Part shown: positions 3,472-43,410 of the stretch, in pieces
How the letters are laid out: each line of letters begins with the position of its first letter
How positions within the stretch are numbered: position 1 is the first letter of the stretch
From: Catenovulum maritimum
GTDB lineage: Bacteria > Pseudomonadota > Gammaproteobacteria > Enterobacterales > Alteromonadaceae
DNA: 64,000 nt
NCBI RefSeq assembly: GCF_001050375.1
Contig: NZ_KQ130482.1
Coordinates: 388,954 to 452,953, forward strand
Direction: 5' to 3'
Translations under genes and position numbers: made by a program
The notes under the pieces: generated by a model
What the model was told of the DNA's origin: nothing
Databases searched by the model: none
The model's input: the letters and a program-made list of their open reading frames with translations, nothing else

Positions 3472-5058
3472 ATGAATGTATTTAATTTAGATAAATGTAA
3501 AAAAATTGGCTTAGTCGCAGCATTGGGTTTAACGAGTTTTTTTACACAAGCGTCTACCTACAATGTTTATACTGAAGCACAATTAAACACAGCTTTAGAG
3601 TCAGCTAAAAATAATGGTTTAGACACAGTAGATACCATTAGAGTGAATGGTACGATTAACATTTACGGCCAAATCGATGTTAAATCTTCAGTTATCATTA
3701 CGGGCGCAGAGTCGAATAGAGGTTCTAAATTAGTTAGACGTAATACCGTTTTTTATAATCCGCTTATAAATGTTCAATATAAAAATGTGACAGTTCAAAA
3801 TATTACACTCGAGGGTATAGGCGCAAATACGAATCAACAGTTACTTTCTTTAGCGGGTGACGACACAAGTAATAGCGCTTTAATTAACCTGCCTGCAACG
3901 AGTTATGCGGCTAATCCCAAAGCTTTTTCTGCTGTCAATGTTAACTTTTTTGATAGTGCAATTGGGGTCGCATCTGTCGGCATTTTACCGCAAGATTTAA
4001 ATATTTCTTATAATACGTTTCAAAACATTAACCGAGCAGTGGAATTACTTAGAGATGTAGATAGAGTCGATGATGCATTACTTGCTAATGTAAGTATTCA
4101 GATGAATGGCGAAGTTATTGGTATGTACGGTGGTAAATTAAATATTTCCAATAACCTAATTAATGCAGAAAATATGCGTTTAGCCATTTCTCTTGATGGC
4201 GGTAATGATGGTGCTGGATTTGTTGGGACTGGCTTTCAAAATCCATGGTCTGAAAAACGTCAAAGATTTACAGATAAACCCGTTTATTATTCTAATACAA
4301 TCGGCGAAGCAGTAATCAACAATAATAAAATTGGCTACTATCAGCATTCTGATGGCAATGTTTGGACCATTGGTCAAACTCGCGAGTTTGGTATTGCATT
4401 GGCAACAGTCGCAAATATTTATGTTGTGGGGAATCATTTACGCACTGGATTAAATTATATTACTCAAGCTGATGGTGTAACGCCTGTGGCGAATGCAAGT
4501 TATGGTTTTGGCTCTGCAATTAATGTTGAACACAATGGAGAAAATATTGTTGTGCAAGCTAATCATATCGTTGTCGGGGCTAAAGGGTCAGGCGCAAATG
4601 CATTTACTGTGCTTGCATTTAATGATCATGGTGCGTTTTGGAATATTGCACAAGCCTCTAAAAATTTAACTTACGCTGATAATGTCATTTCAGGCACGGG
4701 TCAAAACGTGTTTTATGCTATTGGCTATCGAAATCTTAATATGATTAATAATGATGTTCGTAATTTCAACTCAACAGGCCCTGTGTTTGGTTGCGCAGGC
4801 GTTGTTTCACCCATCAACAACTTTCTCGCGAATGTTCCTGGCGGTTACAGTAATAGTTACATGCAGCAAAATGTATCTACTAAGGGGCGTTTATGGTTTG
4901 ATGCTGTCCGAGATAATGGCCAATTAGTTGGTGCTTTCAAAGGTCAAGGCCCTAGAGCTCCAAGATCTTTCTACTATCTTGCTGGAGATGACCCAAAAAA
5001 TCCAAGATTTGGAGATGCTCAAATTGTCGATTCGAGCAGTGTTCTAAGTTGTAATTAG
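3472..5058 (+). CDS. secreted right-handed beta-helix protein (pectate-lyase-like fold)
   Basis: The protein has 528 residues with a Sec signal peptide ending near FFTQAS. The mature part carries the repeated short hydrophobic/Asn-rich strands of a parallel beta-helix, for example VQNITLEGIG, LNISYNTFQNIN, LNISNNLINAEN and LTYADNVISGTGQ. This pattern occurs in polysaccharide lyases and some glycoside hydrolases. I could not place it in a specific PL or GH family, and no catalytic triad is assigned. It probably acts outside the cell on a polyanionic polysaccharide, given the carbohydrate-degrading setting. It stands alone between the repeat array and a strong terminator at 5069, and has a candidate GTTAAC operator upstream. 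Confidence 0.65.
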   Translation: MNVFNLDKCKKIGLVAALGLTSFFTQASTYNVYTEAQLNTALESAKNNGLDTVDTIRVNGTINIYGQIDVKSSVIITGAESNRGSKLVRRNTVFYNPLINVQYKNVTVQNITLEGIGANTNQQLLSLAGDDTSNSALINLPATSYAANPKAFSAVNVNFFDSAIGVASVGILPQDLNISYNTFQNINRAVELLRDVDRVDDALLANVSIQMNGEVIGMYGGKLNISNNLINAENMRLAISLDGGNDGAGFVGTGFQNPWSEKRQRFTDKPVYYSNTIGEAVINNNKIGYYQHSDGNVWTIGQTREFGIALATVANIYVVGNHLRTGLNYITQADGVTPVANASYGFGSAINVEHNGENIVVQANHIVVGAKGSGANAFTVLAFNDHGAFWNIAQASKNLTYADNVISGTGQNVFYAIGYRNLNMINNDVRNFNSTGPVFGCAGVVSPINNFLANVPGGYSNSYMQQNVSTKGRLWFDAVRDNGQLVGAFKGQGPRAPRSFYYLAGDDPKNPRFGDAQIVDSSSVLSCN

Positions 5059-38923: not shown

Positions 38924-39799
38924 ATGTTTAAGATAAGCTCAATTATTTTAACATGTTTCTTAGTAACGGCCTGCAGTCTTGAAATTGATTCTGGTGATGA
39001 AGATATCTCACATTATGGTCTCTATAACAGTATAGAAAGTCAGACTACGACGGATCAAACGAGCCAAAATAGAATCTCAGTCGGTCAATTTGGTTATGCC
39101 ATCATTGACAGCCAACACCATTTATATCAGGTGTCTATGCCAACGGTTGGCACTGCTTCTGATATATTAATTGAGCCAGTTGGCTACGACTGTAGTAGTG
39201 GAACATGTGTGCTAGTGACTGTACAAGACTTAGATTCGAATGGCTCCATGGATTCACTTGGCTACGACTGTGACACGCTAGATTGTGAGCTAGATGTCGC
39301 AACTAGTAAAATTATCACAGCTAAGCTGCAATTTACCGAACAAAAAATCAGTGGTTCTGCTTTACGTTATACTCCAGCCCCTGAAAATTATTCAGCTACT
39401 GGTGAATTTAAGCAAACAGATTTTGTTTTAAACTTAACCAATGATTCCACTAATCAGCCAACTCTTTTTTTACAAAAATCGTCTCAATTAGTCGCTTCCA
39501 ACTTAGACCAAATTTCAGGGAACTGGACAAATACTAATGCGACTAGCAGTTATAGTATTGATAGTGTCGGTAACATCAGTGGTAGCAATCAAGCCGGTTG
39601 CATTGTTTCGGGTAAGTTGACTGGTGAACAAGATCAACTGCTAGAGAAAATCTCATTAGTTATCTCAGGTTGCACTGCAAATAATCAAACAGTGCAAGGC
39701 TACATTGCTCGCATCGCCTCTGAAAACAATGCGAACTTCACATTACTACTCGTTGCGAATAATGACAACTTCGCATTTGGTGAAATATTAATAAGATAA
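38924..39799 (+). CDS. lipoprotein of unknown function
   Basis: The protein has 291 residues with a lipobox (FLVTAC). Two GYDC motifs about 37 residues apart (VGYDCSSGTCVLVTVQD and LGYDCDTLDCELDVA) suggest an internal duplication with paired cysteines. The rest is rich in Ser, Thr and Asn and looks like an extracellular beta-rich domain. No family was recognised. It stands alone between two candidate operator sites and a strong terminator. It may be a surface protein under the same control as the agar genes, which is inference. Confidence 0.6.
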   Translation: MFKISSIILTCFLVTACSLEIDSGDEDISHYGLYNSIESQTTTDQTSQNRISVGQFGYAIIDSQHHLYQVSMPTVGTASDILIEPVGYDCSSGTCVLVTVQDLDSNGSMDSLGYDCDTLDCELDVATSKIITAKLQFTEQKISGSALRYTPAPENYSATGEFKQTDFVLNLTNDSTNQPTLFLQKSSQLVASNLDQISGNWTNTNATSSYSIDSVGNISGSNQAGCIVSGKLTGEQDQLLEKISLVISGCTANNQTVQGYIARIASENNANFTLLLVANNDNFAFGEILIR

Positions 39800-39872
39800 T
39801 CCGAGCGGTATAGCGCTAAATTTTTAAAATTATTGATCGGAGTCATCTAACTAAACAGAAGTTACGTAGATT

Positions 39873-39919
39873 AGCTATTGCCGTTTTAGGATTGATAAAA
39901 CAGCAATAGCTCATTTTTT
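39873..39919 (+). terminator. strong intrinsic terminator at the left edge of the retron island
   Basis: The arms AGCTATTGC (39873-39881) and GCAATAGCT (39903-39911) are extended inward by GTTTTA / TAAAAC. They are followed by CATTTTTTAATT. Confidence 0.85.
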
Positions 39920-39931
39920 AATTAGTGGCTT

Positions 39932-40210
39932 TTAACTGGACAATTTCGATATCAGCAGCCGTAATCGCGCTTTATTACGATACGCGGGTGGAAAATAACT
40001 TGTATCTATGCCACCCAATTGCATCAACCATGGCCATTTAATTACATACAGCGTTGCCACCGCTTAGATGTGATAGTATCAAAGGACTGCTCCGTGCCAT
40101 AAGCAGACATTGAGGCTAACTCATAATTGCCCCATTACGAGTTTAGTCGAGCGTCGCAAATGAGCGAATTGCGGACGGTCGAAATTTTAAACATTACCGC
40201 ATTTTATTTT
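39932..40210 (-). other. decayed sequence / dispersed-repeat remnant
   Basis: No intact gene is present. On the minus strand a 43-codon frame (40063 to 39932) ends in a protein-like stretch (GIDTSYFPPAYRNKARLRLL). A second frame just upstream (40134 to about 40045) reads WGNYELASMSAYGTEQSFD, as if one product had been broken by a frameshift. Within it, the minus-strand sequence at 40107-40080 matches 23 of 28 bases of the plus-strand sequence at 43133-43160. It could be a pseudogene or a non-coding dispersed repeat. Confidence 0.35.
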
Positions 40211-40299
40211 ATATAAGCAGACGCTTAGCCAACATCGTTGATGTGCAAGTTATGTTGGAATATATTGCAGCTTGATTTTTTGACTAAAAATCTATATAT

Positions 40300-40500
40300 T
40301 TAGTGGCATACCTAGCGACTAGGAGCATCTCCAGTCAGTATGCAAGGTCACTACAGGCTATGAGTCATGTTACCCTTACGCCAATTCGCCTATCTGTGTA
40401 TTGGCGTAAGAATGTAACCTACCCCTTCCTTTTCCTTTCAGAAATCCCTATTCACTCATTCCTGTTACAATTATCAAATTTTTTGCTGGCGTACAGATAA
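40300..40500 (+). ncRNA. putative retron msr/msd RNA
   Basis: This structured region lies 95-295 bp before the reverse transcriptase gene. Hairpin 1 (40306-40343) has GCATAC pairing with GTATGC, then GACT-(A)-GGAG pairing with CTCCAGTC around a CAT loop. The internal loop holds TAGCG, comparable to the TTAGCG at the branch point of known retrons. Hairpin 2 has CTTACGCCAAT (40375-40385) pairing perfectly with ATTGGCGTAAG (40400-40410), extended by GTTAC/GTAAC. A pyrimidine-rich tract follows. A weak a1/a2 candidate is TACCTAGC (40309-40316) with GCTGGCGTA (40485-40493). The structure is visible in the sequence; the msr/msd role is inferred. Confidence 0.5.
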
Positions 40501-40594
40501 GAAACATCCACACCATATACATTAATCTTTTAGCCAGTATACTGATAACATAACGTATTAATAAGTATAGGTTTATAGGCGGAGCATTATACAC

Positions 40595-41596
40595 GTGAAC
40601 GGTGAGAACAATAGACGATGTCTACAAGAAATATTTGTCTCGACATTCCATGACAAAATAATGTTTAAAGACTTCATGCAAATTGATGTGAATGGTGAAT
40701 TTCAGAAGATTAATCTGAAAAAACGTACAGTGTACGCTCCTACACCTAAACTAAAATTGCTCCACCGTTTTATAAATAACACTGTATTAGAGTTCGCAGA
40801 CTACAACGCTGATGTAGTTTTTTCTTACAGAAAAGGTGTAAGTATTCGTAATGCTGTTGAAAAGCATTCACATAATAATTTTTTCTTTCAAACAGACCTA
40901 TCGAACTTCTATGGCAATATTCACCAAAGTGAAGTTCAAACGGCATTAATGAATCAGCTTAAAAATACACCTGTGTTAGACGTGGAAAAATATATCCAAA
41001 GAATAGTAGAACTAGTTATTGTTGATGACCATATTCCTGCCGGATTCTCGACGTCGCCTCTATTAAGCAATATTTGCCTATTTAGCTTCGATAATGAGCT
41101 TTTAAAATATTGCCAGGCACATGACCTTACTTATACTAGATATTCAGACGATTTAATTATATCCGGTCAGACTAATGAGTTCGCTGGAGATATTGAACCA
41201 GTAATTAATAATTTACTGGCCGAGTATGTAAATACCGGAATTAGTATCAATAAATCTAAGACTAAACTTCACAAAAAAGGGCACAAATTCAAGTTACTTG
41301 GCTTTAGTATTCTACCAAATGGGGTTGTTACAATACCTAGTGCAGATAAAAAAGAAATCGAGTCTCTGCTTTATTTTTATTTAACGGATAACAATAAATT
41401 TGAAAACCATTTTAAGAATACTCAGAATCCTAAGGATATAGAGTCCTATGATAAATCATTAAGAGAGCACGCTTTAGGTACACTATCGGGAAAATTGATA
41501 GCTTTTAACTCAATGGACAAGCAGTACGTTTCTAAATTACGTCGAAAATATGGCAATACAGTGATTGATATGTTCATCAGAAAGTCGGTGAAGTAA
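40595..41596 (+). CDS. retron-like reverse transcriptase
   Basis: The protein has 333 residues, the single-domain size of retron reverse transcriptases. In order: KKRTVYAPTPKLKLLHRFI (RT1), GVSIRNAVEKH (the NA-x-H-like element), FFFQTDLSNFYGNI (first catalytic Asp), IPAGFSTSPLLSNI (RT4) and the active site YTRYSDDLIIS (Y183, D185, D186). Then come INKSKTKLHKKGHKFKLLGF and a C-terminal SKLRRKYGN. YSDD replaces the common YADD, and LLGF replaces the VTGL often seen in retrons. The start is GTG 40595 with GGAG 10 nt upstream. The next gene begins 1 bp after its stop, so the two are co-translated. It would make an RNA-linked DNA used in anti-phage sensing. Confidence 0.85.
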   Translation: MNGENNRRCLQEIFVSTFHDKIMFKDFMQIDVNGEFQKINLKKRTVYAPTPKLKLLHRFINNTVLEFADYNADVVFSYRKGVSIRNAVEKHSHNNFFFQTDLSNFYGNIHQSEVQTALMNQLKNTPVLDVEKYIQRIVELVIVDDHIPAGFSTSPLLSNICLFSFDNELLKYCQAHDLTYTRYSDDLIISGQTNEFAGDIEPVINNLLAEYVNTGISINKSKTKLHKKGHKFKLLGFSILPNGVVTIPSADKKEIESLLYFYLTDNNKFENHFKNTQNPKDIESYDKSLREHALGTLSGKLIAFNSMDKQYVSKLRRKYGNTVIDMFIRKSVK

Positions 41597-41597
41597 A

Positions 41598-42992
41598 TTG
41601 AATATTACAATTACAGTTAGTAATGTTCAACATATACACAAGCAAGAAGTCTCCTTCGATTTGTCTAAAAATCATCTTATGTGTATTGCAGGTAAGAACG
41701 GAGTGGGAAAGACTACTTTGATACGTGCTATACGTAATTTAGCCATAAATAATACATTTCAAGAAACCGCCGCCCCATATATATTTAATAAAGACAGTAA
41801 AATCAAATATTCAATTGATAAATTAGCTGAGCCAATTGAATTTACGTTCAACAAATTTTTAAAAGGTATAGACAGTCGGCAAGATATACCAGAAGAGCTT
41901 AAGTCTATTATTAATGTCGAGCTACCAATACCCCATGGAGAGCGTTTTAACCACTTCAGGCGCTTATCTGACATTGACGAATTATTGCGAGCTAAAATAG
42001 CTATAGGTGAATTCACAGCACCAGCAGAGTTAATTACATTCTTGGAAAGGATCTATGGCGAGAATAGATTCGAGTTGTTAAAACAAGTTGAAATCAGTAA
42101 AACCACTTACTATTTTATTCTCAAAGATGAAGAGGAAAGGTATTACATTAGGGAAGATTACTTTAGCTCTGGTGAGTATTTTGTTGTTAATTTGTTTAAG
42201 CAAATTCAGCAAGGCAAAAAATTGATTGTAATTGATGAAATAGATATTTCGTTAGATGCTAGTGCTCAAGTTAATCTAGTTAAAGTGCTTCGAGAGTATT
42301 GTATTCAATATCAAACAAATATTGTGTTTACCACTCATTCACTTGCGTTGATGAAAACACTAGAGGACGACGAATTATACTATATGGAGCCAGTTCAAGG
42401 ACCTGATGGTGCTCGCATTTCAGTCACGCATCGTTCGTATAACTTCATTAAGAGTGTAATGTATGGCTTCACAGGATTTGACAAGTATATACTGACTGAA
42501 GATGAGTGTTTAGCTAACTATATCAATTATTTAATCAGCACTTTTGATAATGGGGTATTTTTTAAATACCAAATTATCTACATTGGTGGTGCGACTCAAG
42601 TAATTGATCTTAAGAGGCGAAATGATAATGCTAATTTTCTTTCTGAACCAAAAAATATAATGGAAGTATTAGATGGTGACCAAAGAGGAAAAGCTTATAC
42701 ACATGATGTTGAAAATTTGATTTTTCTGCCATTTTTGAACATAGAACTTGAGTTATATAGAAGGTTTGAAGCGGGAGAACTTCCGATTTCTGGTTTAAGT
42801 GAAATAACTAATAAAAAAGAAACTGACAAAGCGAAAAATTTATACAAACAATTGACTAAAATAGATTACGTACGTGGAGCGTTGATGTCAAAGGAAGATA
42901 TTTACGCTTATTTGGAAACATTGAACCCAGATGGAGTACAGGAATTCAAAGAGCATCTTCGTGAATTTTTAACCATCGAGTTTGATAAATAA
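41598..42992 (+). CDS. ATPase-TOPRIM (OLD-like) retron effector
   Basis: The protein has 464 residues. An ABC/SMC-type ATPase domain shows Walker A GKNGVGKTT (from G32), an ABC-like signature SSGEYF, Walker B KLIVIDEID (D213, E214) and an H-loop IVFTTHS. The C-terminal ~170 residues fit a TOPRIM nuclease: ILTEDECLANYI (E301/E303) and VLDGDQRG (D359, D361). This is the layout of OLD-family nucleases that serve as effectors in some retron defence systems. The start is TTG 41598 with GGTGAAG upstream, 1 bp after the reverse transcriptase stop. It is likely a toxic nuclease held in check by the RT-msDNA complex and released on phage attack; this follows from known systems and was not shown here. 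Confidence 0.8.
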   Translation: MNITITVSNVQHIHKQEVSFDLSKNHLMCIAGKNGVGKTTLIRAIRNLAINNTFQETAAPYIFNKDSKIKYSIDKLAEPIEFTFNKFLKGIDSRQDIPEELKSIINVELPIPHGERFNHFRRLSDIDELLRAKIAIGEFTAPAELITFLERIYGENRFELLKQVEISKTTYYFILKDEEERYYIREDYFSSGEYFVVNLFKQIQQGKKLIVIDEIDISLDASAQVNLVKVLREYCIQYQTNIVFTTHSLALMKTLEDDELYYMEPVQGPDGARISVTHRSYNFIKSVMYGFTGFDKYILTEDECLANYINYLISTFDNGVFFKYQIIYIGGATQVIDLKRRNDNANFLSEPKNIMEVLDGDQRGKAYTHDVENLIFLPFLNIELELYRRFEAGELPISGLSEITNKKETDKAKNLYKQLTKIDYVRGALMSKEDIYAYLETLNPDGVQEFKEHLREFLTIEFDK

Positions 42993-43074: not shown

Positions 43075-43410
43075 ATATCATATGTGGACGGCTGCTTTGA
43101 AATTTTTAATAAACTAAGCAAGAATGTTCTGAACGTCCGCTTCTGGCACAGAGCCGTCCTTCGGCTCTAAATTGTTTCTGTCCAAAAACGTGCTAGAGTG
43201 GCCGTCCGCTTTTCGCGCAAAGCAGAAATATAGGCTTTGTGCCACAGTGAACTTAATTTGTCAGCGGCAAACTTAATGCAATTCAGTGGTGACCGTAAAT
43301 GTCATTTGGTGGCTGTGTTGAATGATAATGACTGGCATTTTTGATGTAATAGGCTGGCAAATTTAATGTGATTTTCCACGTGGGGGCGGGGGCAAACTTA
43401 TTGATTCCAA
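43075..43410. mobile_element. remnant repeat region right of the retron, resembling an IS end
   Basis: No gene is present. GGCAAACTTAATG-like words recur at 43248-43259, 43266-43283, 43334-43350, 43356-43373 and 43391-43408. Repeats of this type are typical of transposase binding sites at the ends of IS21-like elements, but no transposase is present. A GC-rich hairpin AGAGCCG/CGGCTCT lies at 43150-43168. The 28-bp sequence at 43133-43160 is related in inverted orientation to 40107-40080 on the other side of the retron. The IS assignment is an inference. Confidence 0.4.

What the first reader, a model, noticed from the sequence alone, without database searches (positions are those of the whole stretch)
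40300..40500. Structured RNA upstream of the reverse transcriptase that could be msr/msd
Two stable stem-loops (40306-40343 and 40369-40418) and a TAGCG word in an unpaired position lie within 300 bp of the reverse transcriptase start, the expected place for a retron RNA. The terminal a1/a2 pairing is only weakly visible, so the ends are uncertain.
Basis: partly seen in the sequence, partly recalled or inferred. Interest (0 to 1): 0.75.

Follow-up and report, generated by a model that had tools for sequence, protein, structure and literature searches.

The report
Retron RNA lacking the usual clasp
This is the RNA part of a bacterial anti-phage defence element (a retron), and in this branch of retrons the two RNA ends that normally pair to start DNA copying appear not to pair, which raises a testable question about how copying begins.

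Summary
Window 40307-40420 encodes a structured RNA 5' of a type I-B retron reverse transcriptase (PADLOC RT_I-B, 421 bits) and its ATPase-Toprim (OLD-type) effector (593 bits). A covariance model from 32 relatives finds the RNA in 41 of 44 RT_I-B sources (8 non-copies outside the model) and in 0 of 100 other RT loci; among 394 genomes of the order, in 7, all carrying RT_I-B. Anatomy: promoter; 5'-terminal covarying helix P1; hairpin P2 (8 bp, 3-nt loop); a conserved CnCUA word; the long msd hairpin at 40369-40418. The canonical a1/a2 pairing is not kept in the clade: the 9-nt 5' strand pairs after the msd in 10 of 10 canonical controls but in 1 of 34 relatives here, and instead pairs inside the msr (joint z -10). 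The window itself has one chance-level a2 candidate (40485-40493), absent in its closest relatives. So: a type I-B retron RNA whose clade fails one textbook feature. msDNA, branch point and defence are untested. Mestre et al. 2020, which defined type I-B, could not be read, so priority is unknown.

The parts
40272..40300 (+). predicted sigma-70 promoter of the RNA: TTGATT - 17 nt - TATATT
   Evidence: 9 of 12 matches; in 29 of 34 relatives the best -10 hexamer ends 14 or 15 nt before the conserved GACU (16 in the window itself)
40307..40420 (+). msr-msd RNA; 5' end about 40307-40308 (inferred from the promoter), 3' end unknown
   Evidence: CM R1 match 40307-40389, 65.4 bits, E 1.2e-17 (the window is one of the 32 training rows); fold
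40310..40348 (+). helix P1 (40310-40313 with 40345-40348, 40315-40316 with 40342-40343); its 5' strand sits where a1 sits in canonical retrons and holds TAGC (40313-40316)
   Evidence: across 32 sequences 5 of 6 P1 pairs show changes on both sides, 80.6% of cells paired; 0 of 500 permutations as good; in the window alone 48 of 500 shuffled strands are as good
40317..40336 (+). hairpin P2, GACU-A-GGAG CAU CUCC AGUC: 8 bp, 3-nt loop, the most conserved element; G40317 is G in 32 of 32
40349..40353 (+). conserved segment after P1, C-n-C-U-A (CACUA here; CUCUA most often)
   Evidence: columns 45, 47 and 48 invariant in 32 of 32, column 49 A in 30 of 32
40369..40418 (+). msd hairpin, 19 bp; sequence variable, structure kept in relatives; basal helix GUUAC/GUAAC
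40419..40478 (+). C-rich, G-poor stretch after the msd (C 20, G 2, T 23, A 15); function unknown
   Evidence: C exceeds G in 30 of 34 here, against 10 of 34 in the upstream control stretch
40485..40493 (+). chance-level a2 candidate for the window only: 8 pairs with 40309-40316
   Evidence: -7.6 kcal/mol, 48 of 500 (189 nt) or 19 of 500 (104 nt) shuffles as good; not found in L010, L017 or L012
40595..41596 (+). type I-B retron reverse transcriptase (333 aa, GTG start, catalytic YSDD)
   Evidence: PDLC02937 RT_I-B 421 bits, E 7.2e-127; AlphaFold model pLDDT 89.8, best solved matches are retron RTs
41598..42992 (+). OLD-type effector, ABC ATPase + Toprim (464 aa, TTG start)
   Evidence: PDLC02914 ATPase-Toprim_I-B 593 bits; best Foldseek matches OLD 6p74 and GajA; E301, D302, D359 and D361 invariant in 22 of 22

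Best explanation
40307-40420 is the msr-msd RNA of a type I-B retron (RNA - RT - OLD effector). Shown by computation: it has its own predicted promoter, a 5'-terminal helix P1 that covaries in the clade, a strongly conserved hairpin P2 of the kind RTs bind, a conserved CnCUA word and a long msd hairpin; it goes with this RT clade and with no other RT tested; and in the clade its 5' strand pairs inside the msr instead of with an a2 after the msd. Inferred: the RT binds P2/P1 and copies the msd into a hairpin msDNA. It starts from a guanosine at the P1/P2 junction (G40315 in TAGC, or the invariant G40317), with the 3' end of the template held by the RT and the basal GUUAC/GUAAC helix of the msd rather than by an a1:a2 duplex. 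By analogy with Retron-Eco8, the RT-msDNA holds the OLD nuclease inactive until a phage protein (SSB for Eco8) disturbs the msDNA, and the released nuclease then aborts infection.
For: Proteins: RT_I-B 421 bits and ATPase-Toprim_I-B 593 bits; an OLD relative 3' of the RT in 42 of 43 loci, the other (L106) having no DNA there. RNA: 41 of 44 RT_I-B sources, 0 of 100 control RT loci; 7 of 394 genomes, all within the 8 with RT_I-B. Covariation: 8 of 14 pairs with changes on both sides, score 0.304 against 0.175 shuffled, 0 of 500. Promoter: mean score 9.05 against 4.6 +- 2.7 in shuffles. a1/a2 not kept: with 10 of 10 positive controls; in the closest relative L010 P1 is -11.7 kcal/mol with 0 of 500 shuffles as good, while its downstream match is at chance (383 of 500). 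Structure: RT closest to retron I-A, Eco7, Ec78, Ec86, Ec83 and Eco8 RTs.
Against: No RNA, msDNA or phage data. In the window itself P1 is weak (A-A mismatch, -5.7 kcal/mol, 48 of 500 shuffles as good) and an alternative partner at 40485-40493 is stronger (-7.6); if the RNA ended at 40500 that partner would be favoured for C40311 (0.51 against 0.19), while P1 is favoured if the RNA ends at 40425 or 40594 (0.67, 0.65). Only 14 of 34 relatives reach 5% individually for P1. The number of further pair types is not above shuffles (156 of 500). Of seven 5' segments tested against the whole downstream region, -30..-18 (the -10 element) gave Stouffer -3.31, -9..+4 gave -1.88 and -40..-28 gave -1.78. 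TAGC or CAGC occurs in only 13 of 32, so the branch point is not fixed. L016 has RT_I-B and an OLD gene but no R1 match; L034 matches only at E 0.34. No match in Rfam.
Confidence: 0.83

Rival explanations
1. A canonical retron RNA whose a1/a2 exists but was missed: short, imperfect, lineage-specific, or formed by a longer transcript that starts upstream.
For: In the window the 5' strand can form 8 pairs with 40485-40493 (-7.6 kcal/mol), with TAGC at the inner end as in known retrons. ACCUA can also pair with UAGGU (40568-40572) near the RT start, and L017 has AUAGGUUU in a like place (by eye). Segment -30..-18 gave Stouffer -3.31. A general inverted-repeat scan had no power even on canonical retrons.
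Against: The anchored test finds a2 in 10 of 10 canonical controls and in 1 of 34 here, about what chance gives. The window's candidate is equalled by 48 of 500 shuffles and is not found in L010, L017 or L012. The promoter position leaves no room for a separate a1. The same 5' strand is committed to P1 in the clade.
Confidence: 0.2
2. A cis-regulatory leader or attenuator of the RT-OLD mRNA, not a template.
For: It lies 5' of the operon, with a strong hairpin and a C-rich tract behind it.
Against: In L025, L029, L032 and L100 the RNA is on the opposite strand from the RT and reads away from it, so it cannot be its leader there. No terminator-like site was found in 40100-40700. The anatomy matches msr + msd.
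Confidence: 0.04
3. A DRT-like system: the RNA is a template or cofactor without 2'-5' branched priming.
For: In the clade, no a1/a2 and no universal TAGC-type guanosine, the features that place the priming G in known retrons.
Against: The RT is retron type I-B by profile and nearest to retron RTs by fold, and the effector is a retron effector.
Confidence: 0.1

Closest known systems
Retron-Eco8 (E. coli; RT + OLD nuclease; solved 4:4:4 complex)
   Same: RT with an OLD (ABC ATPase + Toprim) effector, the class 3 OLD retrons that PMC10568477 equates with types I-B1/I-B2 (passages); RT fold similar (9p4k_E, Foldseek E 6.5e-17)
   Different: Sequence-distant: RT phmmer E 7.1e-10, and no Eco8 OLD chain is listed at 1e-3. 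Eco8 RNA has IRa1/IRa2, branch G18 and two DNA stem-loops (PMC12887533, sections read); here a1/a2 is not kept in the clade and there is one msd hairpin
Canonical retrons with the Rfam RF00170 msr (ten loci here; the one typed, L049, is type I-A)
   Same: Promoter-like sites just before the 5' strand, an msr hairpin with CCAGaC on its 3' side, a CUCUA word after it, a long msd hairpin, GUAA after the msd (by eye); of solved RTs a type I-A one is nearest in fold (9n69_E, E 3.5e-20)
   Different: There the 5' strand (GCUCUUUA or ACUCUUUA) pairs with GUAAAGAGC-type arms after the msd, beyond chance in 10 of 10; here it pairs inside the msr. R1 does not match those loci, and RF00170 does not match the window. 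Type I-A effectors are PtuAB-like (titles), not OLD
PADLOC/Mestre type I-B (I-B1 layout: OLD 3' of the RT)
   Same: Best RT and effector profiles; OLD 3' of the RT, which PMC10568477 calls class 3B / type I-B1 (passages)
   Different: Its published RNA description (Mestre et al. 2020) is not held here, so RNA-level identity could not be compared

Membership tests
Retron, type I-B | RT of the type I-B retron family | tested here: met
   PDLC02937 421 bits, E 7.2e-127; next best family 166 bits
Retron, type I-B | adjacent ATPase-Toprim (OLD) effector | tested here: met
   593 bits; 3' of the RT in 42 of 43 relatives; acidic residues of Toprim type invariant in 22 of 22 (the motif reading is recalled)
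Retron RNA (as described in PMC6868368, section 6 read) | msr 5' of msd in one cassette, msr with 1-3 hairpins of about 7-10 bp | tested here: met
   P2 8 bp with a 3-nt loop inside P1
Retron RNA (as described in PMC6868368, section 6 read) | msd folds into one long hairpin, about 10-50 bp | tested here: met
   19 bp in the window; a helix of 13-33 pairs in each of the 36 of 38 relatives in which the site was located
Retron RNA (as described in PMC6868368, section 6 read) | 5' end of msr complementary to 3' end of msd (a1/a2) | tested here: not met
   in the clade 1 of 34 against 10 of 10 controls. The window alone has a candidate at 40485-40493 that 48 of 500 shuffles equal
Retron RNA (as described in PMC6868368, section 6 read) | priming guanosine in TAGC or a listed variant at the end of that stem | tested here: inconclusive
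   TAGC at 40313-40316 in the window; TAGC or CAGC in 13 of 32, G at that column in 21 of 32; G40317 invariant
Retron | makes branched msDNA | not testable with these tools
   needs experiment
Rfam RF00170 (msr) | match at the gathering score | tested here: not met
   no match in the window at gathering, none up to E 10 in 39800-40800
Retron-Eco8 | close RT/OLD homology and a two-stem msDNA | tested here: not met
   RT E 7.1e-10, no Eco8 OLD chain listed at 1e-3; one msd hairpin

The most novel reading that the evidence does not exclude
A whole clade of OLD-effector retrons begins reverse transcription without an a1:a2 duplex. The RNA 5' strand is locked into the msr helix P1, so the RT must bring the template's 3' end to the primer by another route (protein contacts plus the msd basal helix), or may not prime from a TAGC-type 2'-OH at all. 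One sub-clade even transcribes the RNA divergently, away from the RT.
Probability: 0.32. Interest if true: 0.75.

Novelty: new variant of a known kind. Interest (0 to 1): 0.5.

Why it matters
The paired 5' and 3' ends are described as what primes retron reverse transcription (PMC6868368), and lengthening a1/a2 raised retron DNA output or editing in several, though not all, retrons (PMC12262390, passages). A natural clade that appears to do without this duplex offers a direct test of what retron initiation really needs, and a possible source of editing templates with free RNA ends. The covariance model and window coordinates make the clade's RNAs findable.

Tried and rejected
Rfam: nothing at gathering in the window, and seven hits up to E 10 locally, six miRNA-type and one snoRNA, read as chance. 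A single-protein scan of genome contigs confirmed no relative; the alignment query worked. The first class-wide RT search found only the window's own genome, 1 of 369. RT_I-B model PDLC02938 rang in 0 of 394 genomes and in none of the 14 controls, so a second I-B branch could not be compared at RNA level. A generic inverted-repeat scan for a1/a2 has no power, since canonical retrons also fail it (mean z -0.18, 1 of 10 individually; family 0.35, 2 of 34); it was dropped in favour of the anchored test. A window pairing of the spacer with about 40451-40464, seen in the whole-region fold, is not a family trait (spacer against downstream, Stouffer +0.47). Reading P1 as a complete a1/a2 with P2 as the template was rejected: P2 is the best-conserved element and the variable long hairpin lies outside. 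Flanking genes were looked for in 20 relatives to find an empty site; neither is widely kept, so no conclusion. VIA-align covered mainly residues 1-292 of the effector, so the Toprim part rests on motif conservation, the PADLOC profile and the Foldseek match to OLD. Eco8 OLD was not among the 50 rows shown; that absence is not evidence.

Papers. PMC12887533: outline with abstract, introduction and msDNA section. PMC6868368: section 6. PMC13158370: the first of two parts of the text. PMC10568477, PMC9252829, PMC12262390, PMC12548924, PMC8867640: passages only. Others: search listings only. Mestre et al. 2020 and the retron census (DOI recalled) are not held. I make no claim that the variant is unpublished.

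Full report
What was claimed and what is there. The region 40290-40500 folds much better than its shuffles (z -3.98, 0 of 200). The second hairpin is exactly 40369-40418. The first resolves into a hairpin P2 (40317-40336) inside a helix P1 (40310-40316 with 40342-40348). TAGCG is mostly paired within P1 in that fold.

The operon. The gene at 40595-41596 is a type I-B retron RT (PADLOC RT_I-B, 421 bits; the next family scores 166). The next gene, 41598-42992, is the type I-B ATPase-Toprim effector (593 bits). AlphaFold models (pLDDT 89.8 and 87.2) match retron RTs (I-A, Eco7, Ec78, Ec86, Ec83, Eco8) and, for the effector, OLD 6p74 and GajA first. Acidic residues of Toprim type (E301, D302, D359, D361) are invariant in 22 of 22 relatives (the assignment of these motifs is recalled). 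With the effector 3' of the RT, the layout is what PMC10568477 calls type I-B1 (passages).

Conservation of the RNA. Relatives came from an order-wide profile search (8 of 394 genomes), plasmid records, species genomes and viral contigs. The region 5' of their RTs holds the same RNA. On 32 aligned sequences, 8 of 14 pairs of P1+P2 show changes on both sides, 91.7% of cells are paired, and the covariation score is 0.304 against 0.175 +- 0.012 in shuffles (0 of 500); sliding the partner strand destroys it, while the number of further pair types is not above shuffles (156 of 500). A covariance model (R1) matches 41 of 44 RT_I-B sources at E 1.7e-5 or better. Of these, 32 trained the model and one (L005) is a copy of another, so 8 are non-copies outside the model (L007, L008, L033, L098, L103, L104, L109, L111); six of the eight had not been found by the motif search (all but L033 and L109). 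The misses are L016, L034 (E 0.34) and L110 (no DNA 5' of the RT). R1 matches 0 of 100 loci around other RTs at E up to 1, one place in the window's own genome, and 7 of 394 genomes of the order, all among the 8 with RT_I-B. An OLD relative lies 3' of the RT in 42 of 43 loci, starting 0-41 bases after it in 41 and 301 bases on in the partial match of L016; L106 has no DNA there.

The 5' end. A sigma-70 promoter stands at a fixed distance from the RNA: in 29 of 34 relatives the best -10 hexamer ends 14 or 15 nt before GACU (16 in the window), and the mean promoter score is 9.05 against 4.6 +- 2.7 in shuffles. With the usual 7-nt step from -10 to +1 (recalled), the RNA begins with AU followed directly by P1. 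That leaves no room for a separate a1.

The a1/a2 question. [quoted passage not shown] I used ten loci with a canonical Rfam msr (10 of 20 loci searched; the one typed with PADLOC, L049, is RT type I-A) as positive controls. Their 9-nt 5' strand pairs beyond chance (5% level) with the 40 nt around the expected a2 in 10 of 10 (Stouffer z -8.43) and with their own msr in 0 of 10. In the family the same strand does so after the msd in 1 of 34 (z -0.01; shifted 4 nt, 3 of 34, z -1.13), which is about what chance gives, but pairs inside the msr jointly at z -10.0 (14 of 34 individually). Permutation gives the same picture: 0 of 500 for P1, 355 of 500 for the downstream region.

Results that lean the other way. 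In the window itself P1 is weak (-5.7 kcal/mol; 48 of 500 shuffled strands as good) and the same strand can form 8 pairs, one G-U and one bulge, with 40485-40493 (-7.6; 48 of 500 over 189 nt, 19 of 500 over 104 nt). That partner would win if the RNA ended at 40500 (0.51 against 0.19 for C40311) but not if it ends at 40425 or 40594 (P1 0.67, 0.65). It is not kept: L010, the closest relative, has a perfect P1 (-11.7, 0 of 500) and only a chance match downstream (383 of 500), and L017 and L012 likewise lack it; L004 has a 5-pair match (76 of 500). Among seven 5' segments tried against the whole downstream region, -30..-18 (the AT-rich -10 element) gave -3.31, -9..+4 gave -1.88 and -40..-28 gave -1.78 (controls -4.83 with a third as many loci). 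Permutation of the 25 nt 5' of the start gave 17 of 500, but shuffles that keep composition gave z -0.51.

Priming base. The window has TAGC at 40313-40316. Across 32 sequences TAGC or CAGC occurs in 13 and G at that column in 21; G40317, two bases on, is G in all 32. Either could be the branch base; no test here decides. P2 (8 bp, 3-nt loop) resembles the stem sizes that RT-Eco1 and RT-Eco3 recognise according to the review.

How it likely works. Shown: the anatomy and its association with the RT-OLD pair. Inferred: RT binding to P1/P2, copying of the msd hairpin, silencing of the OLD nuclease by RT-msDNA, and release on phage infection, by analogy with Eco8, where an RT-msDNA-OLD complex is triggered by phage SSB (PMC12887533 abstract and sections; PMC13158370, first part). 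Without a1/a2, the template's 3' end may be held by the RT and by the msd basal helix (UURC/GUAR-type ends scored in 25 of 38 loci, 36 of which could be located).

Divergent copies. In L025, L029, L032 and L100 the RNA is encoded on the strand opposite to the RT, starting near the RT and reading away. These four RTs group together on the tree (one change, support 89/78, below the starred level; 0 of 500 label shuffles as low). There the RNA cannot be an RT mRNA leader.

Membership and novelty. Proteins and most RNA features place it in type I-B retrons. The a1/a2 feature fails in the clade, so it is filed as a variant. It is not in Rfam. The paper that described type I-B (Mestre et al. 2020) is not in the held library, and PADLOC's own RNA models were not available, so this variant may already be drawn there.

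Noticed in passing
L025 2784-2866 (-), L029 2855-2936 (-), L032 2842-2925 (-), L100 1703-1779 (-): The retron RNA is encoded on the opposite strand to the RT and transcribed away from it; the four RTs group together (support 89/78), so probably one inversion.
   Followed up: yes
window 40419-40478 and the same place in relatives: C-rich, G-poor stretch after the msd (C above G in 30 of 34), built of short tandem repeats in L012, L021, L101 and L102 (by eye). Could be a Rho-loading site or a sign of replication slippage.
   Followed up: partly
L016 about 1200-1500: RT_I-B (317 bits) with an OLD gene but no R1 match; by eye it still has TTGACA-17-TAGAAT, a small hairpin, GCUCUAA and a long hairpin, so the architecture may outlast the sequence.
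   Followed up: partly
L005 (Alteromonas macleodii pAM1A3) 3833-4828: The RT is annotated as two reading frames while the related plasmid stretch L004 has one: probably a broken copy of the same retron.
   Followed up: no
L002 and L003 (own genome C8:1680 and C1:124196): Two other, distant RT relatives in the same genome; L002 lies beside a group II intron match (Rfam RF00029).
   Followed up: no
window 43134-43154 and 43203-43223: Two 21-nt direct repeats (81% alike) just 3' of the effector; possibly a remnant of a mobile or repeat element.
   Followed up: no
window 39870-39914: 19-nt inverted repeat, 7-nt loop, followed by T-rich sequence, between the gene at 38924-39799 and the retron promoter: possibly a terminator that isolates the retron.
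   Followed up: no
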